A program made the position numbers and the translations under genes. The notes beneath the pieces are model-generated. The model did no database searches. It was not told the DNA's origin and saw only the letters and a list, made by a program, of their open reading frames with translations. DNA of 64,000 nt from Umezawaea tangerina (GTDB taxonomy: Bacteria; Actinomycetota; Actinomycetes; Mycobacteriales; Pseudonocardiaceae): positions 372,001 through 436,000 of the forward strand of contig NZ_PVTF01000009.1 of NCBI RefSeq assembly GCF_003002815.1, written 5' to 3'. Position 1 is the stretch's first letter; each line of letters starts with the position of its first letter. Of the stretch, positions 19,623 to 44,034 are shown in pieces.

Positions 19623-19680
19623 GGGGTTGGTTGTTCGTCGGCTCTGGGGAAGCCCAGCCCCCGGCGCGCGATTGTCTCAA

Positions 19681-19735
19681 TGCCCGATCTTCGTTGTCAA
19701 GACGATAAAGCCATCTTGACAACGAAGATCGGGCA
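19681..19735. repeat. Long perfect hairpin, copy A of a repeat family
   Basis: Positions 19681-19702 pair perfectly over 22 bp with 19714-19735 around an 11-nt loop. The stem begins TGCC, has an inner block TTGTCAAGA, and between them a 9-bp block CGATCTTCG that differs from copy B at 43378. The 30 bp before it (including the dyad ATTG-TCT-CAAT at 19671-19681) and about 45 bp after it (GGAGGGCGCTGT, then ATCGGGGGC) are nearly identical in the two copies. It lies between convergent genes. Confidence 0.85.
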
Positions 19736-19762
19736 GGAGGGCGCTGTGGATCGGGGGCAGAG

Positions 19763-19955
19763 GGGAAGTCTGGCTTCGCCAGCATCAGGCTGCGCCTGAC
19801 CAAACATCCTCGGCTTCGCCGTCGGACGAGGCATCCGCGCTTCGCGGCGGACAGGGCATCGGCTGGCGCCGACGAGGCCCCAGGCGCTCCGCGCCGGATG
19901 CGCGCTGGCGGGCTGCGCCCAACGAGGAGGGGTGGCGGACTCGCTTCGCATCGCG
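19763..19955. repeat. Array of short hairpins with GCTNCGC core, island A
   Basis: Seven exact GCTNCGC heptamers (19773, 19789, 19813, 19839, 19886, 19912, 19943) sit at the tips of small inverted repeats such as CTGGC-TTC-GCCAG and CAGGC-TGC-GCCTG. Most are 24-26 bp apart, and one variant (GGCTGGCGCC at 19861) fills a double gap. On the other strand the core reads GCGNAGC. No open reading frame here looks real. The remaining bases up to 20011 show nothing further. Confidence 0.8.
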
Positions 19956-20011
19956 TCGATTGGGCGGGCGGTGGGCGGTCCGCGCCGGGCGTGAGGTGGC
20001 GCTGTGTGGTG

Positions 20012-20665
20012 TCAGGTTGTTGTTGTTGTTGCGGTTAGTAGTGTGCCTAGGCCGTTGGCTAGTTGGGTGAAGCCCTGTTCGGCGGCTGCTACTGCGTGAG
20101 GGTAGAGGTCGTCGGAGCAGGTGCCGGCTACTACGCGTTCGCGGTTGTCGAGGGAGAGCATCCACATGACGGCCATGATTTGGGTGGCGGCGAGTTTGGC
20201 GGTGAGGGTGGGGAGGGCGGCGGTTTCGTGGAGGGCGGCGGCTAGGGCTTCTTCGCCGTTGACCTTGAATTTGAACATGCCTGCGACCAGGGACGGGGTT
20301 CCCAGGATCACGCGGTAGAGGACCAGGGCCGGTTCGAGGTCGGTGAGGCCGGTGATGGGGTCGCGGCGGGACAGGCCGTCGAGGTAGTGGGTGCGCAGGG
20401 CGGCCAGTGGGGGTTGGTCGGGTGGGCGGTTGCGGACTACGCGGCCTGCCTCGGTTTCGTGGTCGGCCATGCGGCTGATGACCAGGTCTTCCTTCGTGGG
20501 GAAGTAGCTGAAGAGGGTGCGGCGGGAGACCTCGGCGGCCTCGGCGACCTGGGTGATGGACACCTGGTCGTAGCCGTGTTCGGCGAACAAGGCCAAGGCC
20601 GTGTCGGAGATGGCCTGGTAGGTCCGCAGCTTCTTCCGCTCGCGCAAACCGGTCTGCTCGCTCAC
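20012..20665 (-). CDS. TetR-family regulator
   Basis: The 217-residue protein has the TetR helix-turn-helix (ITQVAEAAEVSRRTLFSYFPTKEDLV) and a helical ligand domain. The C-terminus ends in a run of Thr (LLTATTTTT) encoded by a short repeat of GTT on the + strand, so the last residues are probably unstructured. The start is GTG 20665. It is divergent from the FAD monooxygenase at 20740 with 74 bp between them, the usual arrangement for a repressor controlling itself and its neighbour; the effector may be the monooxygenase substrate. Confidence 0.87.
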   Translation of the reverse strand: MSEQTGLRERKKLRTYQAISDTALALFAEHGYDQVSITQVAEAAEVSRRTLFSYFPTKEDLVISRMADHETEAGRVVRNRPPDQPPLAALRTHYLDGLSRRDPITGLTDLEPALVLYRVILGTPSLVAGMFKFKVNGEEALAAALHETAALPTLTAKLAATQIMAVMWMLSLDNRERVVAGTCSDDLYPHAVAAAEQGFTQLANGLGTLLTATTTTT

Positions 20666-20688
20666 CGCACCAGACTAGCCGGCCTGTC

Positions 20689-20728
20689 TGCACTGGGGTA
20701 TAACTTGCACTCAGTCTACTTATGCACT
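20689..20728. promoter_or_regulatory. Triple TGCACT repeat between tetR and monooxygenase gene
   Basis: TGCACT occurs at 20689, 20706 and 20723, each exactly 17 bp apart. CTCAGT (20710-20715) and ACTGAG (20726-20731) also form a dyad. TATAAC (20699-20704) may be a -10 box. This is the likely TetR operator region; GAGGGAG at 20731 is the ribosome site of the monooxygenase. Confidence 0.55.
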
Positions 20729-20739
20729 GAGAGGGAGTT

Positions 20740-22152
20740 ATGGACGTCGTCGTGATCGGGGCGGGGCCGACGGGGCTGGTGTTGGCGCACGAGTTGGCGT
20801 TGGGTGGGGCCGAGGTCGTGGTGGTGGAGCGGTTGGCCGAGCGGGTGCGGCAGGTGAAGGGAGGGGCGATCCAGCCGCGCACGTCGGAGCTGCTGGACGC
20901 ACGGGGGCTGCTGGAGGCGATCCAGGAGCGGGCGCTGGAGCGGACGAACGCGGGTGGGCACTTCGCGGGGCTGCCGGTGTCGTTGGACTGCGAGGGCTGG
21001 CAGACCCGGCACCCGTACCCGATCGCCGTCCCGCAGTGGGCGATCGAGGACGTGCTGGCCGAGGCGGCCGTGGCGCGCGGGGTCGCGATCATGCGGGACC
21101 ACGCGGTGACGGCGGTGGAGCAGGACGACGACGGAGTGACCGTGACGGCGGGTGGGGTGGAGCTGCGGGCGGCGTACGCGGTGGCCTGCGACGGGGCGCA
21201 CAGCGCTGTGCGGAAGCTGCTGGAGCTGCCGTTCCCCGGCAGGCCCGGCACCTACCGGGCGGTGCTGACCGACGTGCGGCTGACCGCCGTGTCCGAGCTG
21301 GTGCCGACCACGGCGGGCCACCTGAGCACGATGACCCGGCACGACAACGGGTACTTCGGGATGCTGGTGCCGGTCGGCGGGGACGAGTACCGGTTCACCT
21401 ACGGCGCCACGAGCACCGAGGAGGAGGCGAAGGCGACGCCGGAAGGCGTGCAGCGCGCGTTGACCGCGGTCTACGGCGAGGGCACGGTGCTCGGCGAGGT
21501 GCTGAACTCGTCGTGGTTCAGCGACGCGACCCGGCAGCTGGAGCACTACCGGCACGGGCGGGTGCTGTTCGCGGGCGACTCGGCGCACATCCACCCGCCG
21601 TGGGGCGGGCAGGGGCTGAACCTCGGGGTGCAGGACGCGGTCAACCTGGGCTGGAAGCTCGCGGCGACGACCGCCGGGTGGGCGCCGGAGGGGCTGCTCG
21701 ACACCTACCAGGTCGAACGCCACCCGAAGGCCGCGCGCGTGCTGCACCACACCTCGGCCCAGCGGCTGCTGGCCACCCCCAAGCCGGACGAGGACCTGGT
21801 GGCGTTGCGCGAGATCTTCACCGACCTCATCCGGCTGCCCGACGCCAACCACCACCTGGCCGGGATGATGTCGGGCCTGGACGCCGAGGGACGGGTGCCC
21901 GACCACGACCTGGTCACCGAGGACGGTCCCGTCCGGCTCGCCGAGCTGCTGCGCACCGGTCGCGGGCTGCTGCTGGACCCGACCGGCTCGCTCGACGTGC
22001 CCGAAGGCTGGGCGGACCGCGTGGACGTGGTGCGGGTGAAGTCCGCCGACGACCTCGGCCCGCTGCTGCTCCGACCGGACACCACGGTGTGCTGGTCCGG
22101 CGAGGGGTCGTTGGCCGACGCGCTCACGACAACGTTCGGCCGCGCGGCCTGA
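20740..22152 (+). CDS. FAD-dependent monooxygenase (rifampicin monooxygenase-like)
   Basis: The 470-residue class A flavoprotein hydroxylase has the N-terminal FAD motif VVVIGAGPTGLVLAHELALG, the middle DG motif AYAVACDGAHSAVRKLL and the second FAD motif FAGDSAHIHPPWGGQGLNLG. Length and motifs match Rox-type enzymes that hydroxylate and inactivate rifamycins, but the same subgroup also serves in polyketide tailoring. The divergent TetR gene suggests induction by its substrate. ATG 20740 follows GAGGGAG. It is separated from the cluster by the hairpin island and tetR, so a role in that pathway is only possible. Confidence 0.83.
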   Translation: MDVVVIGAGPTGLVLAHELALGGAEVVVVERLAERVRQVKGGAIQPRTSELLDARGLLEAIQERALERTNAGGHFAGLPVSLDCEGWQTRHPYPIAVPQWAIEDVLAEAAVARGVAIMRDHAVTAVEQDDDGVTVTAGGVELRAAYAVACDGAHSAVRKLLELPFPGRPGTYRAVLTDVRLTAVSELVPTTAGHLSTMTRHDNGYFGMLVPVGGDEYRFTYGATSTEEEAKATPEGVQRALTAVYGEGTVLGEVLNSSWFSDATRQLEHYRHGRVLFAGDSAHIHPPWGGQGLNLGVQDAVNLGWKLAATTAGWAPEGLLDTYQVERHPKAARVLHHTSAQRLLATPKPDEDLVALREIFTDLIRLPDANHHLAGMMSGLDAEGRVPDHDLVTEDGPVRLAELLRTGRGLLLDPTGSLDVPEGWADRVDVVRVKSADDLGPLLLRPDTTVCWSGEGSLADALTTTFGRAA

Positions 22153-22203
22153 GCCGAGGGCCCCGGCGCGCCCGTCGCGAGGCCCCCGGATGTTGTCGGC
22201 GGT

Positions 22204-22229
22204 CGCGGTGGCGTCAGGACGCCACCGCG
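22204..22229 (+). terminator. Hairpin after the FAD monooxygenase
   Basis: CGCGGTGGCG (22204-22213) pairs perfectly with CGCCACCGCG (22220-22229) around a 6-nt loop, 52 bp after the stop codon. Confidence 0.6.
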
Positions 22230-22312
22230 GCGCCGGTCGCGACCGGACGTCCGTTCGACACGATCTCATCACGGACGGATCCGGTCACCCCACGTCTTCG
22301 TCCACTACGGAC

Positions 22313-22900
22313 ATGAGACCCAAGAGACGCATCGCGGCCCTGCTGGTCAGCACCGCCGCCCTCGCCATGGCCGCCACCGCGTGCGGCCCGTCGGACACGT
22401 CCGGCACCCCCACGGGCGCGGCGGGCACCAAGGCACCGGCCGCCACGTCCGCCGCGGCCGAGGGCACGCCCGGCACGGGCTGTCCGCTCAGCGCGGCCGA
22501 CCTGTCGAGCGCCACCGGGCTCAGCTTCGAGCTCGGCGACACCCGCCAGGACCACGAACTGGAGACCCAGCCGGGCGTGAAGGCCCTCGTCTGCGTCTTC
22601 ATCTCCCCCAGCACCCCGCAGGACGCGGGCGACCCGCTCGTGCTCCGCGTCGACACCATCACCGGCGCCAACGCCGCCGCGGCCCGCACCCACTTCGAGA
22701 GCGACTGCACCGACAACGGCGGCACGCTCGGCGAGTCCGCCGTCGCCGACGGCAAGACGTGCACCCGCGGCGCCAACACCATCGAGGGCGACCTCGGAAA
22801 GGGTGGCCGCACGGTCGACGTCTACTTCGTCAACGCCACCACCGACACCGCCGCCGCGATGACCGAGAAGTTCGACAAGGTGCTCGCCGCGGTCTCCTGA
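22313..22900 (+). CDS. Putative lipoprotein, possibly DUF3558-like
   Basis: The 195-residue product begins with a lipoprotein signal: MRPKRRIAALLVSTAALAMA and then ATAC, with Cys24 as the likely lipidated residue. A Thr/Ala-rich linker follows (GTPTGAAGTKAPAATSAAAE) and then a folded domain with four Cys (GCPLSAADL, LVCVF, DCTDNGG, KTCTRG) that could form two disulfides. The pattern is like actinobacterial DUF3558 lipoproteins, whose function is unclear. I chose ATG 22313 because it starts the signal sequence. It converges with the SDR gene, with 9 bp between stop codons. Confidence 0.7.
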   Translation: MRPKRRIAALLVSTAALAMAATACGPSDTSGTPTGAAGTKAPAATSAAAEGTPGTGCPLSAADLSSATGLSFELGDTRQDHELETQPGVKALVCVFISPSTPQDAGDPLVLRVDTITGANAAAARTHFESDCTDNGGTLGESAVADGKTCTRGANTIEGDLGKGGRTVDVYFVNATTDTAAAMTEKFDKVLAAVS

Positions 22901-22909
22901 CGCGACCGG

Positions 22910-23749
22910 TCAGGCCCGCTCCAGGGCCCGGTCCAGCCGGGCGTCCGCGTCGGACCACACGGCTTCGGCCAGGTCGGCGTCGAGGACGAGCGCGTTGGGT
23001 GCCGCGGGAGTGGTGTGCGCGAAGTAGCGGCCCGCCACGGGGTCCGCGGTGGTGGCGAGGTGGACCAGCCGGTGGGCGGCGGTGCGCGGTGAGGCCAGGA
23101 ACGGCCTGCCGAGCACCTTCGCGACCGCCCCGACCGCGCCGAGGTAGCGACCGAAGTCGGAGGCCACGATGCCGGGGTGGAAGTCGGCGACCGGCACGTC
23201 GGGATGGCGGGAGGCGTAGGCGCGGTGCAGCAGCAGCGCGGCGAGCTTGGCGCGCGCGTAGCGCTGGTGCGGACCGAGCCCGAGCGGGTTGTCGAGCTGC
23301 TCGCCGACGTTGCCCGCCTCCAGCGTCGCGCCCTTGTGGGACCTCGACGACGTGGACACGACCCGTCCACGCCCGGCGCGCAGGGCGGGCGTGAGCAGTG
23401 CGACCAGCAGCATCGGCGCGAGCGCGTTGACCTGGTAGTTGGGCTCGTGGCCGTCCGCGGTCGGCTCGGTCGACGGGAACGCGCCGCCCGCGTTGTCGGC
23501 CAGGACGTGGACGACGGGATGGGCCTCGCGCAGCTCCTCCGCGACGCGGCGCACGTCGGCCAGCACGGCGAAGTCGGCGAGGTGCGCGGTTCCCCCGACC
23601 TCCTCGGCGACGGCCCGCGTCCGCCGCGGGGAACGCCCGAGCACGACCACCTCGGCACCGCGGGCGGCGAAGAGGCGGGCGGCCTCGGCACCGGTGCCGG
23701 AGCTCGCGCCGGTCACCACCACCGTGCGCCCGGCGAGGTCGCGGCTCAC
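22910..23749 (-). CDS. SDR-family NAD(P)-dependent oxidoreductase
   Basis: The 279-residue short-chain dehydrogenase has the nucleotide motif VVVTGASSGTGAEAARLF, the DNAGG motif, Ser in VVSTSSRSHKG and the catalytic pair in RYARAKLAAL (YxxxK). It resembles retinol-dehydrogenase/WW-domain-type SDRs, whose substrates are mostly unknown in bacteria. GTG 23749 overlaps the stop of the preceding NmrA-like gene by 4 bp, so the two form an operon controlled from the dyad near 24450. Confidence 0.85.
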   Translation of the reverse strand: MSRDLAGRTVVVTGASSGTGAEAARLFAARGAEVVVLGRSPRRTRAVAEEVGGTAHLADFAVLADVRRVAEELREAHPVVHVLADNAGGAFPSTEPTADGHEPNYQVNALAPMLLVALLTPALRAGRGRVVSTSSRSHKGATLEAGNVGEQLDNPLGLGPHQRYARAKLAALLLHRAYASRHPDVPVADFHPGIVASDFGRYLGAVGAVAKVLGRPFLASPRTAAHRLVHLATTADPVAGRYFAHTTPAAPNALVLDADLAEAVWSDADARLDRALERA

Positions 23750-24423: not shown

Positions 24424-24446
24424 GCCGACTCCCCGTCCGTGGGCTC

Positions 24447-24512: not shown

Positions 24513-24520
24513 GTGGCGGA

Positions 24521-24560: not shown

Positions 24561-27257
24561 CTACGGAACCCTCCACTGCTGGGCAGTGCTGGAGTTGCAG
24601 TCGTAGATCTGCAGTTGCGTCCCGTTGGCCGAGTTGCTGTTCGGGACGTCCAGGCAGCGACCGGACGGCGGGTTGACCAGCGACCCGTTCGCCTTCGGCC
24701 ACCACTGCTGGGCGCCGGTGCCGTTGCAGTCCCAGAGCTGGATCTTGGCACCGTTCGACCGGCTGCTGCTGCTCACGTCCATGCACCGGCCCGCGGCGCG
24801 GACCGTGCCGTCCGACGCCAGGGTCCACTGCTGGGCGGCGGAGGTGTTGCAGTCCCACAGGCGCACGGGCGCGCCGTTGCCCGTGACGGCCGGGTCGGCG
24901 TCCGCGCACTTGGACGCCAGACCGCTGACGGCACCGGTGCGCGCGGGCGTCGGGCCGACGTCGAACGACGGCGGGGCGTCGGCCGCGGCCGTGCCCCACG
25001 AGGACGCCGACGTGCCCAGCGCGTAGTCGAGCGTGCCGCCGTTGGCGACGAACGTCGACGGCAGCCACGGCTTGGTCGACGCGGTTCCGTTGACGCGCAA
25101 CGACTGCACGTACTTCGCCGAGTCGGACGCGCCCGCCGCGGTGATCGTGATGGTCTTGCCGTTGCCGCGGGTGATCGTGGTCTGCGGGAACTGCGGGCTC
25201 GCGAGCACCAGGTCGGCGCGGCCCGGCGCCTCCGGGTACATGCCGAGCGCGGCCCACACCGCCCACGACGACATCTCACCGAGGTCGTCGTTGCCCACCA
25301 GGCCTTCCGGGACCGGCGTGAAGATCGACGTCAGGGCGCGGCGCACCACGTCCTGCGTCTTCGCCGGGGCGCCCGCGTAGGCGTAGGCCCACGGGGTGTT
25401 CAGCGTCGGCTCGTTGCCCAGGTAGGCGTAGGGCTTCTTGGGGCCCGCGTTGAGCTCGGTGAAGAACGTGTCCAGCCGCGAGACCACGGTCGCGTTGCCG
25501 CCCATCGCGTCGAACAGGCCGCGGTGGTTGTAGGGCACGAGCCACGTGTACTGGGCGGCGTTGCCCTCGACGTACTCGTTCTCCTGGATGGGGTCGAACG
25601 CGGGCCAGCTCAGGTCGGTGTTGCGCGGCTTGAGGTACTTCTGCCCGGACTCGAAGATGTTGCGCCAGTTCTGCGCGCGCCGCAGGAAGTTCTCCGCCGT
25701 GGCCGTGTCGCCCAGTCGCGACGCGAGCTGGCTGATGGCGAAGTCGGCGCTGGTGTACTCCAGCGTCGTCGAGGCGGAACCCCAGACGTCCGGCAGGCCC
25801 GTCGGGACGTAGCCGTAGGTGTTGTACTGCAACCAGCCCGGCCGCTGCCGGACGTCGTTGACGCCCGCGACGATGCGCTGCAGGGCCTGCGCGGTGTCGA
25901 ACGACGTGCCGCCGAACGCGTGCACCGTGGAGACGATGATCGCCATCGGGTCGCCGTTCATGACCCCCGTGCCGCCGTTGGCGACGGTCCAGCGGTCGAA
26001 GTAGCCGCCCTGCGCCGCCTGGTTCACGGCCGACTGCGCGATGTCGGAGGCTTCCTTGGGCGCCAGCAGGGAGATGAGCGCTATCTGGGAGCGGTAGACG
26101 TCCCAGCCGGAGTAGTTCGCGTACTGCACGGTCGACGTGGTGTGCACCTGGTTGTCGAACCCGGTGTACCGGCCGTTGACGTCGCTGTACACGTTGGGGT
26201 GCAACAGGGAGTGGTAGAGCGACGTGTACAGCGTGCGCAGCTGCGTCGTCGTGCCGCCGGTGACGTCGATCCGCCCCAGCCAGCCGTTCCACGCCGCCCG
26301 CGACTGGGCCTTCACCTCGTCGAACGACTTCGTGCCGGTCTCGCTCGCCAGGTTGGCCTTCGCGCCGTCGAGGTCGACGAACGAGATGCCGATGCGGGCC
26401 GTCACCGTGCTGGTGTTGAAGGAGACGAACGCCGCCGCCGCGAACGGCTGCACGTCCTGCTGCGTCACGCCGGGCGACGCGGGCAGGTTCTGCGTCTCGG
26501 CGGTCTTCGGCTCGGGCGGCAGCTGCTGCCCGCTCTTGCCCTCGACCGTCCGCCGCGACTCGTCGACCTTGCCCTGCTCGTCCACCACGCCCGCGGTGCT
26601 GAAGTTCTGGTCGAACGTCACCGTGAAGTGCAACCGGTACCGGTTGCCCGCCCCGCAGAACCCACCGCTGTCGGTGTACCCGGACAGGCTGTTCGTCCCG
26701 ATCGTGATCGACCCGCTCGCCGCGTTGAACGCCTTCGCGGCGTCCACCGACAACGACGCCCGCTGCCCCGCCGGGTAGGTGAACCGCGCGACCCCCGACC
26801 GCTGGTTCGCCGTCAGCTCCGTCCGCAGCCCGTTGTCGAACGCCACCGAGTAGTAGCCCGGCTGCGCGATCTCGTTGGCGTGGTTGAACGTGTAGTAGCT
26901 CACCGGGCTCGTACCCAGCGTCGGCATGAACGGGATGTTCCCGAAGTCACTGCACCCCGGCCCCGACAGGTGCGTCAGGCTGAAGCCGCGGATGCGGTTG
27001 TCGTCGTAGTGGTAACCACCGTGCTGGTGCGTGACGGTGTCCGGACTCCACTGCAACATGCCGAACGGCGACACAGCACCGGGGAACGTGTTGCCCGCCC
27101 CACCACCATGCCCGAAGTCCGGCCCACCGGGCTTCGTACCGACGAACGCGTTGACGTACTGAGCCGGATCAGTCACCGCCTGAGCCGTACCGGCCGATAT
27201 CGGGACCGCGACGGCCGCGAAGGTCACGGCCGCCAGGACCACGGAACGAAGACGCAT
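24561..27257 (-). CDS. Secreted GH92 alpha-mannosidase-type glycosidase with C-terminal ricin-B (CBM13) domain
   Basis: The 898-residue protein has a Sec signal (MRLRSVVLAAVTFAAVAVPI, cleavage after GTAQA). It shows GH92 features: YVNAFVGTKPGGPDFGHG with FPGAVSPFGM near the start, GWDVYRSQI in the middle, and GLVGNDDLGEMSSWAVWAAL near residue 650, which holds the acidic catalytic region. GH92 enzymes are calcium-dependent exo-alpha-mannosidases. The last 130 residues form a beta-trefoil with three QxW repeats (AQQWTL, AQQWWP, AQQWRV), a sugar-binding domain. GGAGGAA lies before ATG 27257. A LacI-type palindrome just upstream suggests control by sugar availability. Confidence 0.9.
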   Translation of the reverse strand: MRLRSVVLAAVTFAAVAVPISAGTAQAVTDPAQYVNAFVGTKPGGPDFGHGGGAGNTFPGAVSPFGMLQWSPDTVTHQHGGYHYDDNRIRGFSLTHLSGPGCSDFGNIPFMPTLGTSPVSYYTFNHANEIAQPGYYSVAFDNGLRTELTANQRSGVARFTYPAGQRASLSVDAAKAFNAASGSITIGTNSLSGYTDSGGFCGAGNRYRLHFTVTFDQNFSTAGVVDEQGKVDESRRTVEGKSGQQLPPEPKTAETQNLPASPGVTQQDVQPFAAAAFVSFNTSTVTARIGISFVDLDGAKANLASETGTKSFDEVKAQSRAAWNGWLGRIDVTGGTTTQLRTLYTSLYHSLLHPNVYSDVNGRYTGFDNQVHTTSTVQYANYSGWDVYRSQIALISLLAPKEASDIAQSAVNQAAQGGYFDRWTVANGGTGVMNGDPMAIIVSTVHAFGGTSFDTAQALQRIVAGVNDVRQRPGWLQYNTYGYVPTGLPDVWGSASTTLEYTSADFAISQLASRLGDTATAENFLRRAQNWRNIFESGQKYLKPRNTDLSWPAFDPIQENEYVEGNAAQYTWLVPYNHRGLFDAMGGNATVVSRLDTFFTELNAGPKKPYAYLGNEPTLNTPWAYAYAGAPAKTQDVVRRALTSIFTPVPEGLVGNDDLGEMSSWAVWAALGMYPEAPGRADLVLASPQFPQTTITRGNGKTITITAAGASDSAKYVQSLRVNGTASTKPWLPSTFVANGGTLDYALGTSASSWGTAAADAPPSFDVGPTPARTGAVSGLASKCADADPAVTGNGAPVRLWDCNTSAAQQWTLASDGTVRAAGRCMDVSSSSRSNGAKIQLWDCNGTGAQQWWPKANGSLVNPPSGRCLDVPNSNSANGTQLQIYDCNSSTAQQWRVP

Positions 27258-27283
27258 GGTTCCTCCTGCAGGGACGAGGAAGA

Positions 27284-27297
27284 TGACAACGTTGTCA
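27284..27297 (-). promoter_or_regulatory. LacI-family operator palindrome upstream of GH92
   Basis: TGACAACGTTGTCA is a perfect 14-bp palindrome centred on CG, 26 bp before the start codon. This form is typical of LacI/GalR operators in actinobacteria that repress glycoside-hydrolase genes until the sugar inducer is present. Confidence 0.7.
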
Positions 27298-27419
27298 GCG
27301 TGGATTCTCCCACCGACTTCCCTGGTCAGGAACCCGCTACGCGGCGCAACCTTCGTACACCCACCGTTGTCCAGCGGACAGAACAAGGGACACGACCACA
27401 AGCCAGAGCCGAGCAGCCC

Positions 27420-27560
27420 GACCCAACAAAACCCAAGGAGCACCCACAACCACAACAGACCCGAGGACCACGCCCACCCACAACGACACCGAGCACGCCC
27501 ACCCACGACAGAACCCGAGGAGCACGCCCACCCACGACGCCAGCGAGCCCACCCGTCCGC
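27420..27560. repeat. C/A-rich degenerate tandem repeats
   Basis: The 13-mer CACGCCCACCCAC recurs at 27469, 27494 and 27523, preceded by variants of CGAGGA or CCGAG. The surrounding 140 bp are built from related C/A-rich pieces. No gene is seen. It leads into the long palindrome at 27563. Confidence 0.6.
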
Positions 27561-27562
27561 CC

Positions 27563-27683
27563 GTGCGGCCGACTTGACTTGGGGTTTTTGGGCTTAAACT
27601 TGCGGCGGCGGGCAGGCTCTACCACCTGCCCTTTTTCGCCCGACGAAGCCCAAAAAAGGGGCCCCAAGTCAAGTCGGCCGCAC
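27563..27683. repeat. 121-bp nested palindrome (island C)
   Basis: Positions 27563-27584 pair perfectly with 27662-27683 (22 bp, outer arm GTGCGGCCGACTTGACTTGG). After a GGGG bulge on the right side (27658-27661), TTTTTGGGCTT (27585-27595) pairs with AAGCCCAAAAA (27646-27656). A third hairpin, GGGCAGG (27610-27616) with CCTGCCC (27625-27631), sits in the loop. The strong ends and lack of coding suggest a non-autonomous mobile repeat or a structured RNA. Confidence 0.8.
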
Positions 27684-27699
27684 CCGGAGACAGCTGTAG

Positions 27700-27870
27700 C
27701 GACACCCCGCTTAGATCCTCTGCGCGATACCCCGCCCTACCCCTCTGCGGCGATACCCCGCTTAGATCCTCCGCGACGACACCCCGCTCTGCCCCCTCCG
27801 CGACGACACCCCGCGCTTCGACACCCCGCGACAACACCCCGTCCTACCCCACGACAGCATCAACCACCCC
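27700..27870. repeat. Imperfect tandem repeats, period 25-27 bp
   Basis: Units of the form CGAYACCCCGCTTAGATCCT followed by CYGCG start at 27700, 27725, 27751, 27777 and 27804, with a shortened one at 27819. The array follows the nested palindrome. The remaining bases up to the prcA stop at 27926 show nothing further that I can name. Confidence 0.75.
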
Positions 27871-27925
27871 ACACACAACAAAGCGGGACACCCCCACCCG
27901 GAGATGCCCCGCAATGCCTCAAACC

Positions 27926-28741
27926 CTAAGCCTTGTCGTCGTTCGGCGGCAGGTTCACATCCTTCGTCGGCTTGGCCGGCCCACCCTTGGTGGACGTAGG
28001 CGCCTCCGACTTCGGATCCTCCGCCCCCGGCTCCTCCCCGGACGGCAGCATCGCGTCCAGAGCCGCCCCCACGATCCGCCGGAAAGCCCGACGCGGTCGG
28101 TCGCGTTCGAGGACCGCCACTTCCAGCTTGCCCCGGTCCAGCAGGTCCGGTTTACCGTTGCCGGTGCTCGTCGACCCCGCGCTCAGCCCGCGGACCGCCA
28201 CGCTCACGGCGTCGGCCAGCGCCAGCCCGTCGGCGAACAGGTCCTTGAGCGCGGTCGTGGTGGCCTCGGCCTGGCCGCCCATGACCACGTACTGGGGCTC
28301 GTCGACGATGGAGCCGTCGTAGGTGAGCCGGTACATGGTGTCCTGCTCGGGCAGGCTGCCGACCTCCGCGACGCAGATCTCCACCTCAAGGGGCTTGATC
28401 TGCTCGGTGAAGATCGACCCCAGCGTCTGCGCGTACACGTTGGCCAGGGAGCGGCCGGTGACGTCGCGCGGGTCGTTCTGGTACCCGCGGATGTCGGCGA
28501 ACCGGATCCCGGCCTGGCGCAGGTTCTCGAACTCGCTGTACCGGCCGACGGCCGCGAAGCCGATGCGGTCGTAGATCTCCGAGACCTTGTGCAGCGTGCT
28601 CGACGGGTTCTCGGCCACGAACAGGATCCCGTCGGCGTACCTGAGCACGACGACGCTGCGGCCCCTGGCAATACCCTTCCTGGCGTACTCCGAGCGGTCG
28701 CGCAGGATCTGCTCGGGTGAGGCGTACAACGGCATCGTCAC
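27926..28741 (-). CDS. prcA: 20S proteasome alpha subunit
   Basis: The 271-residue subunit forms the gated outer rings of the 20S core with PrcB. It matches actinobacterial PrcA throughout: [60 protein letters not shown], and RPRRAFRRI near residue 220. An acidic, Lys/Pro-rich tail of about 40 residues follows ([17 protein letters not shown]). I chose GTG 28741 (AGGAG 8 nt upstream), two codons before an ATG at 28735; both give nearly the same protein. It is the last gene of dop-pup-prcB-prcA, 40 bp after prcB. A pafA ligase gene, often near prcA, does not follow here; repeats and the GH92 gene do. Confidence 0.97.
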
Positions 28742-35700: not shown

Positions 35701-35837
35701 TCGACCACCCGGTCGCCGGTGATGAGCGTGATCTCCTGGTCGGACAACGGGGTCGCGCCCGCCACGGCTACCTGCGCCGTGGCGAGCGCGACCAGTGCGG
35801 CGACCGCGAGGGCGCCAACCTTCCCCACTGGGTTCAC
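32718..35837 (-). CDS. Secreted S8 subtilisin-like serine protease, 1,039 aa
   Basis: A signal peptide (VGALAVAALVALATAQVAVA) precedes a prodomain and the catalytic domain. The triad is visible: Asp in VAVLDTGVDETHPDL (near 199), His in YGHGTHVASTIAS (near 230) and Ser in SGTSMATPHVAGAAAILAGE (near 400), with oxyanion Asn in VVAAGNEGP. About 600 further residues hold Ig-like/beta-sandwich regions typical of large actinobacterial subtilases. The start is GTG 35837. The protease is likely secreted for protein breakdown. It has no evident link to the flanking proteasome genes. Confidence 0.9.
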   Translation of the reverse strand: MNPVGKVGALAVAALVALATAQVAVAGATPLSDQEITLITGDRVVDGGGVEPAPGREALVFSVYERKGHRYVVPEDALGPIRDGGLDERLFDVTALAEAGYGVRGRPVPVIVGHRPGAVRTAMAGTTAELPVIDASAVAAATDGSAWRAILDGGARKVWLDGRVKASLDRSVRQIGAPAAWEAGLTGAGVKVAVLDTGVDETHPDLVGQEIAERNFSPAADNVDRYGHGTHVASTIASNGTRYRGVAPGARLLDAKVLGDNGGGTESGVLQGMQWAAEQGARVVNMSLGAVDSDTEDPVEEAVNALSARYGTLFVVAAGNEGPRVTTIGSPGSADAALTVGAVDRDDSLAPFSSRGPRVGDGVIKPDLTAPGVGIVAAKAANGRIGTPVEPGYVSASGTSMATPHVAGAAAILAGEHPDWTGGQLKSALTASAKPTAGLTPFEQGSGRVDVARAITQTVGTVPSSVSLGTHVYPHDDDQPVTRSLSYRNSGPTDVVLDLAVDAAAPTGMFTLAPARLTVPAGGEATASVTGFTGLDTADGTYHGAVVATGAGTSVRTPLAIVREAESYDLTLHHVQRPGAPSGNYSTTVISYATGDAIQPYEPDGSVTVRLPKGRYLVDSTAGGPTFDWLVRPSLVLDRDTTLDLDFGTAQPIRITAPDPTAFVRGAAVHYDHRLGTGAVVGKGSMSGGDASLNRMRVANVGPPAPADEEFRSLVSTQWAADNGDFYGLAWHQDGAWPTGFTRAPAKADLAHVRAEVGPGRRLVKPFPTTGAAVADHGLPLPVTGPRDEYLSTEGTSWRTDTREIAADGSTTTFEQRGPVKRYRAGRTYAEHVGRGVLGPAFPPTRDAGQWVTRTGDALHVDVPLFGDRDGNAGFSTVDPRSTTVVRDGVPVGEASGTGAADFALPAEPGEYRLTTSARRAGATTSTAVSATWTFRSGRTDRTTALPLMAVRFDPDTTAARAGRAFAIPVAVQGPAPRSLTAEVSYDGGRTWRRAPVLGRSLVVVHHPRDAVSVSLRATAADRGGDTVEQTILDAYRLV

Positions 35838-39701: not shown

Positions 39702-39773
39702 GGCTGTCCTCCAAGCTCGGTGATCTCCCAGAACTTAGTGGCTCGCGTCGCGCGCGGGTCGCACGGGGTCGGC

Positions 39774-40535: not shown

Positions 40536-41440
40536 CGGGCCACCTCCGCGGTGCGGAACTCCACGCTGTCCTCGGTCAGCTCCAGGTAGGCGTCCTCCAG
40601 GGTCGCGCTGCGCGGGGTCAGCTCGTGCACCGCGATGCCGTGCCGGGCGGCCAGGTCCGCGATGTCCGCGGCCTCCAGCGACCGCACGACCAGCGCGCCG
40701 TCGTCCACGGACACCGACGCGCCCGCGTTCTCCAGCACCGACCGCAGCCCGGCGACGTCGGGCGTGCGCACCAGCACGTCGCGCTTGAACCGGTCGGCCA
40801 GGTCGCGCATCGACGACTCCAGGATCAGCCGCCCGCGCCCGACCACGATGATCCGGTCGGCGGTGAGCGCCATCTCGCTCATCAGGTGGCTGGACACCAG
40901 CACGGTCCGCCCCTCGGCGGCCAGTCCCCTCATCAGGCCCCTGATCCACCGGATGCCCTCCGGGTCGAGCCCGTTGACCGGCTCGTCGAACAGCAGCACC
41001 CCCGGATCGCCGAGCAGGGCCGCCGCGACCCCCAGCCGCTGCTTCATGCCCAGCGACAGCGCGGACACCCGCCGCTTGGCGGCACCGGCCAGGCCGACCT
41101 GCTCCAGCACCTCGACCACCCGCTTGAGGCCGATGCCGTTGCTGCGGGCCAGGCACCGCAGGTGGTTCACGGCGGAACGGCCACCGTGCACGGCGTTGGC
41201 GTCGAGCAGCGCGCCGACCTCGAACATCGGCCGCTTGATCCCCGCGTACCGCCTGCCGTTGACCAGCGCCTCGCCGGACGTGGGGGCGTCGAGCCCCAGC
41301 ACCGCCCGCATGGTCGTCGACTTCCCGGCGCCGTTGGGGCCCAGGAACCCCGCCACGTAGCCGGGTTTCACCTCGAAGGAGAGTCCGTCGACCGCCCGGA
41401 CCGCGCCGTAGCGCTTGGTGAGCTCGCGTACTTCGATCAT
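40532..41440 (-). CDS. ABC transporter ATP-binding protein
   Basis: The 302-residue ATPase has Walker A GPNGAGKSTTMRAVLGL, signature LSLGMKQRLGVAAALLG, Walker B VLLFDEPVNGLD and H-loop SSHLMSEMALTADR. The C-terminal extension of about 85 residues is as in BcrA/NatA types. I chose ATG 41440 (MIEVRELTKRYG); an upstream in-frame start at 41491 would cover the intergenic dyad. It forms an operon with the permease and is divergent from the sensor kinase at 41550. Confidence 0.9.
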   Translation of the reverse strand: MIEVRELTKRYGAVRAVDGLSFEVKPGYVAGFLGPNGAGKSTTMRAVLGLDAPTSGEALVNGRRYAGIKRPMFEVGALLDANAVHGGRSAVNHLRCLARSNGIGLKRVVEVLEQVGLAGAAKRRVSALSLGMKQRLGVAAALLGDPGVLLFDEPVNGLDPEGIRWIRGLMRGLAAEGRTVLVSSHLMSEMALTADRIIVVGRGRLILESSMRDLADRFKRDVLVRTPDVAGLRSVLENAGASVSVDDGALVVRSLEAADIADLAARHGIAVHELTPRSATLEDAYLELTEDSVEFRTAEVAR

Positions 41441-41495
41441 GCCGAGAACCTTGGCGCGATCGGCGCCGCCGCGGATCGGCCCAGCGACCACGACC

Positions 41496-41520
41496 GGGGT
41501 CGGACCACGGTCCGATCCCC
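41496..41520. promoter_or_regulatory. Dyad between ABC transporter and two-component operons
   Basis: GGGGTCGGACC-AC-GGTCCGATCCCC is a near-perfect inverted repeat with a 7-bp perfect core on each side. It lies centrally between the divergent starts at 41440 and 41550 and is the best candidate for the binding site of the response regulator at 42659. Confidence 0.6.
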
Positions 41521-41549
41521 TCCGGCCGGTCCGTCGCTACGGTCGACCG

Positions 41550-42662
41550 GTGACTGCACCTCCCCGCCTGGTCAAGTGGCTGCCGGTCGCCTACTCGGTC
41601 GCCGTGGACGTGGCCGCCGCCGTCGCCGCGACGCTCCTCTACCTCACCTTCGTCGAGATCACCCACGGTCCGGTGCCGTTCGGCTACGTGCTGGCCTTCC
41701 TGATCGGCGTTCCCCTGGCGGTGCGGCGCAAGTGGCCGCTGGCCGTCTACGCGGTCGTGGTGCTCGCCCAGAACACCGCGACCCTGCTGCACATCACGCT
41801 GGAGGTGTACACGCCGACGCTGTTCGCCCTGTACCTGGTCGCGGTCGCCCTGCCCCGCCGCCGGTCAACGCCGGCGCTGGCGTGCGGCGCGGTGCTGACG
41901 GCGGTCGCCGTCGCCATCTCCGAACCGTGGCCGGACGACTTCGGCATCACCCTGACGGTGTGGTTCCTGATGGGCGCGACCTGGACGTTGGGGTGGACCA
42001 CGCGGGTCCGACGGGAGTACGCGGCGAAGGCCGCGGCCGAGGAGGCCGAGCACGCGCTGACCGAGGAGCGGCTGCGGATCGCGCGGGAGCTGCACGACAT
42101 CGTCGCCCACAGCCTGACGATGATCGCGGTGAAGGCCGGGATCGCCAACCACGTGGCCGAGGAGCAGCCCGCCGAGGCCAGGGACGCCCTCCGGGTCATC
42201 GAGACCACGAGCCGGGCCACCTTGGTGGAGATGCGGCACCTGCTGGGGGTGCTGAGGTCGTCGGAGGGGCCGGAGCTCTCGCCCGTGCCGGGTCTGGGAG
42301 ACCTGCCGGCGCTGGTGGAGCGGGCGGGGATGGCCGGAGTGCCGGTGTCGCTGACCATTACGGGTGCGCCGGGACTGCCGGACGGGGTGGGGCTGACGGT
42401 GTACCGGATCGTGCAGGAGTCGGTGACGAACGTGGTGAAGCACGCCGCACCCGCGCGGTGCTCGGTCTCGATAGCCGTCTCGGACGCGCGGGTCGTGGTC
42501 GAGGTGTCGGACGACGGCGCCGGTGAACGGGTGCTCGCCGGTGGCGGCGGGCACGGGTTGGCGGGGATGAGGGAGCGGGTGGCGATGTACGGGGGCGAGT
42601 TCCGGGCCGGACCGGGACGCGACGGCGGGTTCCGGGTGGTCGCCGAGGTGCCGTTCGGATGA
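41550..42662 (+). CDS. NarL-type sensor histidine kinase
   Basis: The 370-residue kinase has about four to five N-terminal TM segments without a large extracellular loop, so it probably senses a signal at or in the membrane. A HisKA_3 box follows (RLRIARELHDIVAHSLTMIA, phospho-His in ELHDIV), then an ATPase domain with YRIVQESVTNVVKHA (N box) and VSDDGAG/GGGGHGLAGMRERV (G boxes). GTG 41550 lies 6 nt after TACGGT, which could be a leaderless -10. It overlaps the response regulator gene by 4 bp. Confidence 0.9.
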   Translation: MTAPPRLVKWLPVAYSVAVDVAAAVAATLLYLTFVEITHGPVPFGYVLAFLIGVPLAVRRKWPLAVYAVVVLAQNTATLLHITLEVYTPTLFALYLVAVALPRRRSTPALACGAVLTAVAVAISEPWPDDFGITLTVWFLMGATWTLGWTTRVRREYAAKAAAEEAEHALTEERLRIARELHDIVAHSLTMIAVKAGIANHVAEEQPAEARDALRVIETTSRATLVEMRHLLGVLRSSEGPELSPVPGLGDLPALVERAGMAGVPVSLTITGAPGLPDGVGLTVYRIVQESVTNVVKHAAPARCSVSIAVSDARVVVEVSDDGAGERVLAGGGGHGLAGMRERVAMYGGEFRAGPGRDGGFRVVAEVPFG

Positions 42663-43294
42663 TCAGCGTCTTGGTGGTGGACGACCAGGCCCTGCTCCGG
42701 GGCAGCTTCCGGCTGCTGGTGGACTCCGCGCCGGACCTCCAGGTGGTCGGCGAGGCGGGCAACGGTCGTGAAGCGGTCGAGCTCGTGCGGACCACGGGGC
42801 CGGACGTCGTGCTGATGGACATCCGGATGCCGGAGATGGACGGGATCGAGGCGACCAGGCGGATCGCCGCCGAGTCGAAAGTGCTGATCCTGACGACGTT
42901 CGACCTGGACGCGTACGTGTACGCGGCGCTGCGGGCCGGGGCGAGCGGGTTCCTGCTCAAGGACACGCCACCGGTGGAACTGCTGGCGGGGGTTCGGACG
43001 ATCGCCGCCGGGGAGGGGCTGCTGGCGCCGACGGTGACGCGGCGGTTGATCGAGGAGTTCGGGAGGAGGCCGGAGAGGCGGGTCAGTCGGGGGCTGGAAG
43101 GGGTTACGGAGAGGGAGAGGGAGGTGCTGGTGCTGATCGCGAAGGGGTTGTCGAACGCGGAGATCATGGGGGCGTTGCATGTGAGTGCGGGGACGGTGAA
43201 GACGCATGTGGGGAGGTTGTTGGGGAAGTTGCAGGCGCGGGATCGGGCGCAGTTGGTGATTGCGGCTTATGAGGCGGGGGTGGTGGATGTGTAG
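42659..43294 (+). CDS. NarL/LuxR-family response regulator
   Basis: The 211-residue protein has a receiver domain (VVDDQALLRG; phospho-acceptor Asp in DVVLMDIRMPEMDG; Thr in LILTTFD; Lys in FLLKD) and a LuxR helix-turn-helix (VTEREREVLVLIAKGLSNAE, then SAGTVKTHVGRLLGKL). It is partner of the kinase at 41550 and probable regulator of the divergent ABC transporter. The last 230 bp of the gene are written in a G/T-rich codon style, as in the permease that ends before island A. Confidence 0.92.
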   Translation: MISVLVVDDQALLRGSFRLLVDSAPDLQVVGEAGNGREAVELVRTTGPDVVLMDIRMPEMDGIEATRRIAAESKVLILTTFDLDAYVYAALRAGASGFLLKDTPPVELLAGVRTIAAGEGLLAPTVTRRLIEEFGRRPERRVSRGLEGVTEREREVLVLIAKGLSNAEIMGALHVSAGTVKTHVGRLLGKLQARDRAQLVIAAYEAGVVDV

Positions 43295-43377
43295 GTCTGC
43301 GGGGGTGGGGCGGGCGGGGGTTGGGCGGGGGTTGGGGGAAAGAGGGAAGCCCGGCCCCCGGTGCGCGATTGTCTCAA

Positions 43378-43434
43378 TGCCTCACCCCTGTTTGTCAAGA
43401 CGATGAAGCTGTCTTGACAAACAGGGGTGAGGCA
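43378..43434. repeat. Long perfect hairpin, copy B of a repeat family
   Basis: Positions 43378-43401 pair perfectly over 24 bp with 43411-43434 around a 9-nt loop. TGCC at the base and the inner block TTGTCAAGA are the same as in copy A (19681), but the block between them is TCACCCCTGT, with matching change on the other arm. Flanks (GCGCGATTGTCTCAA before, GGAGGGCGCTGT after) are shared. Bases 43295-43377 before it are G-rich and hold no gene. Confidence 0.85.
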
Positions 43435-43462
43435 GGAGGGCGCTGTTTATCGGGGGCGGGAG

Positions 43463-44034
43463 GGGGTCTGGCTTCGCCAGGATCAGGGCATCCTCGCTGC
43501 GCGTCGGACAAGGCATCAGGCTTCGCCTGACAAGGCCCCTGGCGCTCCGCGCCGGATGGGGGTGGCGGCTGACGCCCGGCGGATGATCCTCGCTGCGCGT
43601 TGGACAAAGCATCGAGCTTCGCCTGACAAAGCATCGGCTGGCGCCGACAAGGCCCCAGGCGCTCCGCGCCGGTTGGGGGTGGCGGGCTGCGCCCATCGGG
43701 GGCATCCTCGGCTCCGCCATCGGACACCGCATCCTCGCTGCGCGTTGGACACTGCATCCTCGCTACGCGTCGGACAAGGCGGGCGGGCGCTCCGCGCCGG
43801 TTGGGGGTGGCGAGCTCCGCCCAACGGGGGCATCCTCGCTGCGCGTTGGACACTGCATCCTCGCTACGCGTCGGACAAGGCGGGCGGGCGCTCCGCGCCG
43901 GATGCGCGCTGGCGGGCTCCGCCCAACGGGGGCATCCTCGGCTCCGCCATCGGACACCGCATCCTCGCTGCGCGTTGGACCAGGCATCAGGCTTCGCCTG
44001 ACAAAGCATCCGGGCTGCGCCGGACAGGGCGACA
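43463..44034. repeat. Large array of short hairpins with GCTNCGC core, island B
   Basis: There are 21 exact GCTNCGC heptamers between 43471 and 44020 with spacing of 23-27 bp, apart from two gaps of 48 and 45 bp that contain variants (GGCTGACGCC, GGCTGGCGCC). Units are small inverted repeats such as CAGGC-TTC-GCCTG, GGCGC-TCC-GCGCC and GGGC-TCC-GCCC, joined by linkers like GGACA and GGCAT. A higher-order copy is visible: about 70 bp from 43730 recurs from 43831. Open frames across it (for example on the minus strand with repeated CPTRSEDA) follow from the repeats and are not genes. Confidence 0.85.

What the first reader, a model, noticed from the sequence alone, without database searches (positions are those of the whole stretch)
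19645..43480. Repeat family with covarying hairpin stems, two copies 23.7 kb apart
Copy A (19681-19735) and copy B (43378-43434) share flanks of about 30 bp before and 45 bp after, the stem base TGCC and the inner stem block TTGTCAAGA, yet the middle of the stem differs completely (CGATCTTCG versus TCACCCCTGT) with the pairing arm changed to match. Such compensatory change means that pairing itself is under selection, in RNA or as a DNA hairpin or cruciform. Both copies sit between convergent genes and both lead straight into an array of mini-hairpins.
Basis: seen in the sequence. Interest (0 to 1): 0.8.

Follow-up and report, generated by a model that had tools for sequence, protein, structure and literature searches.

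The report
Hairpin repeats centred in mutation-skewed DNA
The two hairpins belong to a repeat family with 177 copies in this genome whose stems change sequence but stay paired, and the copies examined typically sit in the middle of about one kilobase of DNA on each side that has mutated in a strand-specific way, which suggests that these small non-coding elements drive local mutation.

Summary
Copies A and B are 2 of 177 copies in this 10.7-Mb actinomycete genome. The anatomy recurs in other genera: outer stem P1, internal loop J, hypervariable stem P2, near-invariant tip P3 (TGTCAAGRC-loop-GYCTTGACA). P2 covaries strongly: 96.9% of cells pair against 69.1% shuffled, 0/500. P2 has almost no G-T or A-C intermediates and favours neither strand, so pairing matters or is renewed in DNA rather than RNA. 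At 19 sampled loci orthologous with a sister species the element keeps its place, but P2 similarity is no better than chance.

The larger finding is a skew. Up to about 1 kb of DNA on both sides, genes included, is G-rich (and T-rich) on the element's own strand, whatever the gene direction (GC skew positive in 86/92 and 87/92 copies read). Element-free orthologous genes lack it. One inverted orthologue reverses it on one flank. It ignores replication direction in the sister species. My reading: DNA hairpins that recurrently expose one strand and so cause local strand-specific mutation. The enzyme is unknown; no Y1/RAYT transposase was found in 12 of 12 genomes.

The parts
19649..19664 (+). 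Copy A: conserved left edge GAAGCCC and P1 5' arm GCCCCCGG
   Evidence: located; P1 paired in the fold
19665..19680 (+). Copy A: internal loop J, 5' side (CGCGCGATTGTCTCAA)
19681..19694 (+). Copy A: variable stem P2, 5' arm (TGCCCGATCTTCGT)
19695..19721 (+). Copy A: conserved tip P3 with loop (TGTCAAGAC-GATAAAGCC-ATCTTGACA)
19722..19735 (+). Copy A: variable stem P2, 3' arm
19736..19758 (+). Copy A: internal loop J 3' side (GGAGGGCGCTGTGGA) and P1 3' arm (TCGGGGGC)
19768..20001 (+). Mini-hairpin array following copy A (GC-rich palindromes with spacers such as GGACAAGGCATC); ends approximate
   Evidence: whole island absent at the orthologous place in G001
43346..43361 (+). Copy B: conserved left edge GAAGCCC and P1 5' arm
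43362..43377 (+). Copy B: internal loop J, 5' side (TGCGCGATTGTCTCAA)
43378..43392 (+). Copy B: variable stem P2, 5' arm (TGCCTCACCCCTGTT)
43393..43419 (+). Copy B: conserved tip P3 with loop (TGTCAAGAC-GATGAAGCT-GTCTTGACA)
43420..43434 (+). Copy B: variable stem P2, 3' arm
43435..43457 (+). Copy B: internal loop J 3' side and P1 3' arm
43468..44026 (+). Mini-hairpin array following copy B (25-nt and 101-nt tandem units); ends approximate
18751..21250 (+). Zone around copy A with + strand GC skew of 0.2 or more in most 500-bp windows, reaching into both convergent genes
42251..43500 (+). Zone around copy B with + strand GC skew of 0.2 or more in 500-bp windows, reaching into the LuxR-type gene
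27563..27683 (-). Copy of a second, different structured repeat family (22-bp outer stem GTGCGGCCGACTTGACTTGGGG), also inside an oriented skew patch (27251-28250)

Best explanation
The hairpins are copies of a high-copy, non-coding DNA element that works as a folded DNA hairpin. The tip P3 and internal loop J are kept in sequence, as a protein recognition site would be. P2 has to be paired but can have any sequence. The outer stem P1 also seems to covary (judged by eye). Shown: anatomy, covariation, positional conservation with turnover of P2, location mostly at gene 3' ends without regard to transcription direction, and about 1 kb on each side in which the element's + strand has lost C (and A) and gained G (and T). 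Inferred: the hairpin is recognised, perhaps nicked on one strand, so that the + strand repeatedly becomes single-stranded on both sides. Damage to that strand and error-prone refilling then give C>G, C>T and A>G changes. The same process changes P2, and fold-back or template-switch copying, together with selection for a foldable hairpin, restores its pairing. The fork-linked orientation in three genomes of another genus suggests spread or maintenance through lagging-strand single-stranded DNA there. The enzyme is unknown.
For: 177 copies in the own genome, 0 for the reversed control. Covariation. WC pairing of P2 in G000 0.990 against 0.552 with arms dealt at random. In P2 almost no wobble and no strand preference of mismatches: 11 against 16 of 2925 cells. 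No bias of element orientation in tandem gene pairs, 47 against 50. GC skew on the element + strand positive in 86 of 92 (up) and 87 of 92 (down) G000 copies read, 87 and 88 after turning one misoriented copy; 43 and 41 of 46 in G002; 25 of 25 and 20 of 24 in G272. Four-fold sites in G000: + strand C falls from 0.43-0.45 at 1.2-1.5 kb upstream to 0.08 (+ genes within 300 bp upstream), and is 0.11 in - genes 300-600 bp downstream. The same genes where the element is absent are not skewed. At one locus with the element inverted the substitutions of one flank run the opposite way (C>G 81 against G>C 4). Substitutions rise towards the element, with G/T exceeding A/C 0.030 to 0.003 per site at 300-600 bp downstream. 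Skew is independent of fork direction in G002: upstream mean 0.238 (n=29) and 0.246 (n=17). Element + strand = lagging template in 50/57, 18/21 and 13/15 listed copies of G213, G222 and G259.
Against: No enzyme was found, and the obvious candidate family is absent. G002 shows no fork-linked orientation (27 of 60 listed copies). The skew is weak in G078 and G213 (means 0.06-0.07, 19-20 of 25-27 copies positive) and not consistent in the five copies each of G001, G222 and G259 (up 4 of 5 each; down 3, 2 and 2 of 5); in 39 further distinct copies GC skew is positive in 31 upstream and 26 downstream. TA skew in G000 is weaker (56 and 79 of 92). In + genes downstream of G000 elements C hardly changes with distance (0.27-0.35), although T rises from 0.06 to 0.18. 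Downstream asymmetry of substitutions is strong but upstream it is weaker (300-600 bp: C/T 0.032 against A/G 0.023, G/T 0.019 against A/C 0.007). The inverted locus shows the reversal clearly on one flank only. The loop-closing pair of P3 is C-A in 34 of 233 copies and T-G in 1, a strand-asymmetric pattern that would be a wobble on the - strand. Stem mismatches are common in G002 (25 of 46 fully paired over 13 pairs). Causation is inferred from presence/absence at two sites and one inverted locus, not from an experiment.
Confidence: 0.5

Rival explanations
1. Template switching alone: one arm of the palindrome is copied onto the other during replication, so covariation needs no selection for pairing; P3 and J are conserved for another reason.
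For: Near-absence of wobble or mismatch intermediates and replacement of most of P2 at an orthologous locus (L055/L271, 9 of 13 positions, same J, P3 and loop). The process is described for RNA genes (PMC8794818, abstract and the part of the introduction shown) and for E. coli and yeast quasipalindromes (abstract starts in the search listing).
Against: It does not explain new P2 sequences, the conserved tip, or the oriented skew of the flanks. Mismatched chimeras persist, and several loci of G002 share the same imperfect stem.
Confidence: 0.25
2. A structured RNA (3' UTR element or small RNA) with selected pairing.
For: Covariation with a conserved terminal loop and internal loop looks like an RNA motif. 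The loop-closing P3 pair is C-A in 34 copies, which would be a wobble if the - strand were the RNA.
Against: G-T/T-G about 0.4% of P2 cells and no excess on either strand; no orientation preference relative to transcription (47 against 50 in tandem pairs); no Rfam family at gathering score, and the hits below gathering score are eukaryotic miRNA precursors, which I take to reflect a long hairpin; it would not explain skew on both flanks.
Confidence: 0.08
3. Bidirectional transcription terminators between gene 3' ends.
For: 119 of 230 copies lie between convergent genes and only 14 in apparent divergent pairs; copies in G078 and G213 often have GTTTT(T) after the stem.
Against: No T run after the stem at the window copies (GGAGGGCG follows). 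At site B a separate ordinary 15-bp hairpin stands next to the ATPase gene (44066-44101), similar hairpins are seen in G001 and G002 (by eye), and G001 does without the island. A conserved tip and flank skew are not terminator traits.
Confidence: 0.08
4. Insertion preference or replication bias: elements insert, oriented, into DNA that was already G/T-skewed, or the skew is ordinary leading-strand skew.
For: Orientation follows the fork in G213, G222 and G259; the only 3 counter-oriented G213 copies with enough flank have mean GC skew 0.03 up and -0.06 down.
Against: Element-free orthologues are unskewed: both flanks of site A and of site B in G001, and the TetR side of site A in G002. Skew in G002 is equal in both replication orientations. 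Random points show same-sign skew in 65 of 4000 (other actinomycetes) and 16 of 3316 (window away from the islands) against 59 of 92 elements in G000.
Confidence: 0.07
5. REP/RAYT-type or MITE-type mobile palindromes mobilised by an undetected transposase; skew is a by-product of nick-primed re-synthesis at the palindrome.
For: High-copy extragenic palindromes; uneven distribution among genomes; islands present or absent at orthologous sites. Nick-primed strand replacement causing excess substitutions was proposed for rayt genes (PMC2817692, passages read).
Against: No Y1 transposase in 12 of 12 genomes, no GTAG/GTGG head at the stem foot (by eye), and at least 19 sampled copies are at positions shared between two species.
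Confidence: 0.2

Closest known systems
REP / BIME elements with RAYT transposases
   Same: Short extragenic palindromes in high copy number, palindromic features preserved through variation, species-specific variants (PMC2817692, passages read).
   Different: No RAYT/Y1 gene found in 12 genomes, no GTAG head (by eye), stem with conserved tip and variable middle, oriented flank mutation.
IS200/IS605 single-stranded DNA elements and their hairpins
   Same: Functional unit would be a DNA hairpin; orientation tied to the lagging-strand template in three genomes; targeting of that strand is stated for IS608 and ISDra2 in the abstract start of PMC6006769 (search listing).
   Different: No transposase gene found, no orientation bias in G002, persistence at orthologous loci.
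Integron attC sites
   Same: Single-stranded folded recombination sites with conserved boxes and sequence-tolerant stem parts (recalled).
   Different: Here the tip is conserved and the middle varies; integrase and cassettes were not searched for.
Strand-coordinated clustered hypermutation of long single-stranded DNA (kataegis in eukaryotes)
   Same: Mutation clusters from lesions in long single-stranded DNA (abstract starts of PMC6786661 and PMC3521656 in the search listing); C>T and C>G on one strand as its signature is recalled.
   Different: Bacterial, tied to a repeated hairpin, accumulated over evolution rather than in one burst, and also A>G; no deaminase known here.
Quasipalindrome template-switch mutations
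   Same: Would keep arms complementary (PMC8794818).
   Different: Explains arm identity only.

Membership tests
REP/RAYT elements | High-copy extragenic palindrome | tested here: met
   177 copies; gene-end context of 230 sampled copies
REP/RAYT elements | Cognate Y1 (PF01797) transposase in the genome | tested here: not met
   0 of 12 element-rich genomes; 1 of 8 others; 5 of 14 control genomes positive
REP/RAYT elements | GTAG/GTGG head at the foot of the palindrome | tested here: not met
   stem foot is preceded by TCTCAA, GTGACT or GTGCTGA-like sequences (by inspection)
IS200/IS605-type ssDNA element | Orientation bias to the lagging-strand template | tested here: inconclusive
   met in G213 50/57, G222 18/21, G259 13/15; not in G002 27/60 (listed copies only, terminus assumed opposite dnaA)
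IS200/IS605-type ssDNA element | Hairpin formed in DNA | tested here: inconclusive
   absence of wobble pairs and of strand preference in P2; no direct probing possible
MITE | Target-site duplication at a clean insertion junction | tested here: inconclusive
   G001 lacks the whole island at both sites but intergenic DNA is too diverged to place a junction
MITE | Autonomous relative with a transposase between the same ends | not tested
   no full gene set of these genomes was available
Intrinsic terminator | GC hairpin followed by a T run | tested here: not met
   window copies are followed by GGAGGGCG; four or five T after a G occur in copies of some other genomes
Known structured RNA (Rfam 15) | Match at gathering score | tested here: not met
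   only a cobalamin riboswitch at 57830-58002 in the window; miRNA hits below gathering score at site A
Integron attC | Cognate integron integrase and cassette arrays | not tested
   no search made

The most novel reading that the evidence does not exclude
A class of small non-coding DNA hairpins acts as a local, strand-specific mutator. Hundreds of copies at gene ends each keep about 2 kb of chromosome under directional mutation (C and A lost, G and T gained on one strand), which reshapes the codons of the neighbouring genes and diversifies the hairpin's own stem while its recognition tip is conserved. At least two different repeat families in this genus do so.
Probability: 0.45. Interest if true: 0.93.

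Novelty: new variant of a known kind. Interest (0 to 1): 0.8.

Why it matters
Bacterial mutation is usually treated as nearly uniform apart from replication and transcription strand effects. Here a dispersed repeat appears to set the local direction of mutation in protein-coding genes, visible at third codon positions and as shifted substitution spectra, and it is oriented by the repeat itself. That gives a natural, testable system for hairpin-triggered single-stranded DNA and error-prone repair in bacteria. It also warns that perfect covariation need not mean RNA structure, and it gives a concrete reason why intergenic palindromes could distort codon usage, gene prediction and phylogenies of neighbouring genes.

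Tried and rejected
Rfam search of the window and of site A: only unrelated or sub-threshold hits. RAYT/Y1 transposase: not found in 12 element-rich genomes. Transcription-associated skew: rejected because the sign is the same on both sides and in convergent, tandem(+) and tandem(-) contexts. Replication skew: rejected for G002. Ordinary hairpins as cause: 1 of 45 perfect hairpins in loci of other named genomes shows same-sign skew. Neighbouring genes in six loci were listed but no shared gene was seen by eye; they were not searched against families. Identity of the organism: records of its own genome may be left out of the named collection (note), so the genus is not named; the family search sampled 46 genera, and the two nearest named relatives of one window protein are Lentzea species (73-74% identity), so family Pseudonocardiaceae is my inference. 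Literature: seven searches listed no paper whose title or abstract start describes this repeat or an element-oriented skew; the library holds only part of the literature.

Rows dropped and weak points of my counts. The G271 match (L102, stem not paired; probably chance) was left out's element counts by genome; without it the strict pattern stands in 10 genomes and 4 genera. Copies with two or more tip mismatches were kept only if P2 paired (2 copies, L246 and L247). Copies with fewer than 10 of 13 P2 pairs (8 of 233) were left out of the mismatch-type count. My purine-loop rule turned one G000 copy (L031) the wrong way; turned correctly the GC-skew counts are 87 and 88 of 92. The mixed set of 47 matches held 2 repeats and copies already counted; 39 were new. 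Which of the loci L188-L207 belong to G001 and G259 was inferred from listing order and sequence. In one search two of five measures (pairs changed on both sides, 16 against 14.7; further pair types, 50 against 51.1) do not exceed the shuffles, and the structure was chosen on the same alignment. In one search at most 14 candidates per genome were scored (10), so copy numbers there are floors and weak single matches may be ordinary hairpins. Gene directions and coding sites come from my own codon-bias caller, not from annotation. P1 covariation was judged by eye.
Full report
What was checked. Copy A has 22-bp arms (19681-19702, 19714-19735) and copy B has 24-bp arms (43378-43401, 43411-43434), all complementary, with folding z-scores of -8.3 and -9.7. 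Flanks, stem base and inner block are shared, the stem middle differs and is matched on the other arm. Both sites lie between convergent genes and run into GC-rich arrays.

Copy number and range. The inner palindrome occurs 177 times in the genome to which the window belongs (10.7 Mb, 34 contigs), with no match for the reversed control. I read 92 of the 177. A strict pattern finds it in 11 of 297 genomes and 5 of 46 genera of the family, with 177, 139 and 78 copies in the three genomes of the own genus; one of the 11 (G271) is probably a chance match. A covariance model finds matches at E <= 1e-4 in 89 of 297 genomes and 16 of 46 genera; scoring was limited to 14 candidates per genome, and weak single matches may be ordinary hairpins. 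In a sample of the class it is nearly absent: 2 of 394 genomes at E <= 1e-10, one of them the own genome.

Anatomy. From outside to inside: outer stem P1 (GCCCCCG/CGGGGGC, CACCCCG/CGGGGTG, GCATCCC/GGGATGC and others); internal loop J with conserved 5' and 3' sequences; stem P2 of about 13-17 bp, variable; tip P3 (TGTCAAGRC / GYCTTGACA) with a purine-rich loop, 9 nt in the counted copies, such as GGGAAAGAT or GATAAAGCC, and longer in some other genomes. Between copies of one genome P2 is hypervariable: 26 of 27 distinct 13-nt arms in G078, 53 of 92 in G000, but 9 of 25 in G272.

Covariation. In 62 aligned copies from ten genomes, chosen for distinct arms, 96.9% of cells pair against 69.1% in shuffles, the covariation score is 0.673 against 0.142, and no slid version exceeds 0.148; the number of pairs that change on both sides (16 of 24) and the number of further pair types are not above shuffles. 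Across 233 copies 194 are fully paired over 13 P2 pairs. In the 225 copies with at least 10 pairs, 45 of 2925 cells are not Watson-Crick: 11 G-T/T-G, 16 A-C/C-A, 18 others. RNA stems under selection usually pass through G-U pairs (general knowledge; also stated as the common belief in PMC8794818); here they are about 0.4% and not enriched on either strand. I conclude that pairing is kept or renewed at the level of DNA. One observation points the other way: the pair that closes the P3 loop is C-A in 34 of 233 copies and T-G in 1. Exceptions to pairing exist: chimeras such as L009, L045 and L062, whose arms come from different variants, and several G002 loci that share an imperfect stem; only 25 of 46 G002 copies are fully paired.

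Persistence and turnover. At 19 loci both flanks of a G000 copy match those of a G002 copy (81-97% identity in the matched stretches); 18 are in the same orientation and one (L035/L294) is inverted (from 92 and 46 sampled copies). At these loci P2 differs at 6.1 of 13 positions on average, the same as random pairs of the same subtype between the genomes (6.2-6.4), and 14 of 19 keep the subtype. At L055/L271 the upstream intergenic flank, J, P3 and the loop are conserved while 9 of 13 P2 positions have changed on both arms. So position is inherited and P2 turns over faster than its surroundings.

Context. Of 230 copies 119 lie between convergent genes, 97 between tandem genes (47 in one orientation, 50 in the other) and 14 in apparent divergent pairs (own gene caller). 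The element sits mostly at gene ends and does not care about transcription direction.

The oriented skew. Oriented by the element (purine-rich loop strand = +), GC and TA skew rise towards the element from both sides with the same sign. In G000 GC skew is positive in 86 of 92 copies at -600 to -150 and 87 of 92 at +450 to +900 (means 0.24 and 0.22), against a mean of 0.02 at -1400 to -1000 and 0.11 at +1050 to +1450; with one misoriented copy corrected the counts are 87 and 88. TA skew is weaker (positive in 56 and 79 of 92). In G002 GC skew is positive in 43 and 41 of 46. In G272 it is 25 of 25 and 20 of 24. In G078 and G213 it is weaker (20 of 27 and 19 of 25; 19 and 19 of 26), and in five copies each of G001, G222 and G259 it is not consistent downstream. 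In 39 further distinct copies from these and other genomes it is positive in 31 upstream and 26 downstream. In G000 it is the same in convergent, tandem(+) and tandem(-) settings. At four-fold degenerate sites in G000 the + strand C content falls from 0.43-0.45 at 1.2-1.5 kb upstream to 0.08 within 300 bp upstream in genes on +, and is 0.11 at 300-600 bp downstream in genes on - (0.29 at 1.2-1.5 kb), with G near 0.79 in both; genes on - upstream fall to 0.23; genes on + downstream hardly change in C (0.27-0.35) although T rises from 0.06 to 0.18. In the window only 18751-21250, 42251-43500, 27251-28250 and 63251-63750 hold 500-bp windows with |GC skew| of 0.2 or more; the first two hold copies A and B, the third holds another repeat, the fourth is unexplained.

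Presence/absence tests. Site B: the LuxR-type gene beside the island has four-fold C of 0.17 (0.05 in its nearer half) in the window and 0.08 in G002, which also has the element, but 0.48 in G001, where the island is absent, and 0.42 on average in 17 named homologues taken from the 80 (range 0.22-0.66). Site A: the TetR gene has coding-strand G of 0.08 in its nearer half in the window, against 0.49 in G001 and 0.45 in G002, whose fetched stretches (1601 and 2701 bp) hold no element; in G002 only the TetR side of the site is orthologous. Substitutions from G001 to the window within 600 bp upstream of site A are C>G 52 against G>C 3, C>T 16 against T>C 0, A>G 11 against G>A 2; upstream of site B C>G 60 against G>C 8, C>T 20 against T>C 0, A>G 12 against G>A 7 (direction read from the empty site, not from an outgroup). 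At L035/L294, where the element is inverted between species, the L035 downstream flank shows C>G 81 against G>C 4, C>T 43 against T>C 10, A>G 44 against G>A 1, as expected if each lineage mutates by the orientation of its own element; the other flank differs little (94.6% identity, C>G 16 against G>C 3). Over 18 orthologous pairs divergence rises from about 7-8% beyond 1.2 kb to 11.5-13% at 0-600 bp upstream and 300-600 bp downstream (20% in the sparse 0-300 bp downstream). The excess is strand-asymmetric, strongly downstream (300-600 bp: G/T 0.030 against A/C 0.003, C/T 0.036 against A/G 0.014 per site) and less so upstream (G/T 0.019 against A/C 0.007, C/T 0.032 against A/G 0.023). Gene ends may also be less conserved in general, which this does not exclude.

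Controls. Same-sign skew above 0.15 on both sides: 59 of 92 elements in G000 and 20 of 46 in G002, but only 4 of 24, 1 of 25 and 2 of 26 in G272, G078 and G213; 65 of 4000 random points in other named genomes, 16 of 3316 points of the window away from the islands, 1 of 45 ordinary perfect hairpins. In G002 the skew is equal for copies in both replication orientations (upstream 0.238, n=29; 0.246, n=17), so it is not replication skew there. In G213, G222 and G259 the element + strand is the lagging-strand template in 50 of 57, 18 of 21 and 13 of 15 listed copies (p = 4e-9, 0.0015, 0.007), but in 27 of 60 in G002 (dnaA positions; circular chromosomes with the terminus opposite dnaA assumed; the lists are copies that earlier calls printed, not all copies). 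In G213 only 3 counter-oriented copies could be measured, and they show no skew, so replication is not excluded as its cause there.

Reading. The data describe a DNA hairpin with a conserved tip and internal loop, a stem that needs only pairing, and a zone of directional mutation on one strand on both sides. The simplest mechanism that gives the same sign on both sides is recurrent single-strandedness of the + strand around the hairpin, for example a strand-specific nick at the folded element followed by gap widening and error-prone refilling. A break with two-sided resection or transcription of convergent genes would give opposite signs. The dominance of C>G beside C>T would fit loss of deaminated cytosine and insertion of C opposite the gap, but that is inference. 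Pairing of P2 can be restored by fold-back or template-switch copying (a process described in PMC8794818) and by selection for a foldable hairpin; I cannot separate the two. A related idea, nick-primed re-synthesis at palindromes that raises substitution in the neighbouring gene, was proposed for RAYT genes (PMC2817692, passages read), but no Y1 transposase was found in 12 element-rich genomes.

A second family. The third skewed patch of the window contains a different structured repeat (outer arms 27563-27584 and 27662-27683). BLAST gives 40 scored places for it, the cap, in each of the three genomes of the genus. Ten copies per genome were examined: in the window's orientation upstream GC skew is negative in 10, 10 and 7 of 10 and downstream in 10, 9 and 9 of 10 for G000, G002 and G001. 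So the skew is not special to one sequence family.

Limits. No enzyme, no experiment, two presence/absence sites and one inverted locus; the skew is strong only in the own genus and, upstream, in G272. Gene directions and coding sites come from a simple caller. Papers were seen as search listings except PMC8794818 (abstract and start of the introduction) and PMC2817692 (passages).

Noticed in passing
   Followed up: partly
window 63251-63750: A patch with GC skew of -0.21; no inverted repeat was reported in 62700-64000.
   Followed up: partly
window 57830-58002: Cobalamin riboswitch (RF00174, 104.6 bits).
   Followed up: no
window 35751-35793: A hairpin that matches part of the element model on both strands (23 and 17 bits); probably an ordinary hairpin.
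   Followed up: no
L190 and L222 (genome G078): Two element copies break off at the same base of the right P1 arm and continue with the same sequence CAATACCGCTAAGTTAAGCGCGG, perhaps an insertion sequence that targets the hairpin.
   Followed up: no
L201/L207 (genome G001, C2:723428 and 723720): Two copies in inverted orientation about 290 bp apart with different P2 stems.
   Followed up: no
L009, L045, L062 (genome G000): Chimeric copies whose left and right P2 arms match two different variants, evidence of recombination within the conserved tip.
   Followed up: partly
window 44066-44101: Ordinary 15-bp perfect hairpin beside the proteasomal ATPase gene; similar hairpins with other sequences are seen at this place in G001 and G002 (by eye).
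   Followed up: partly
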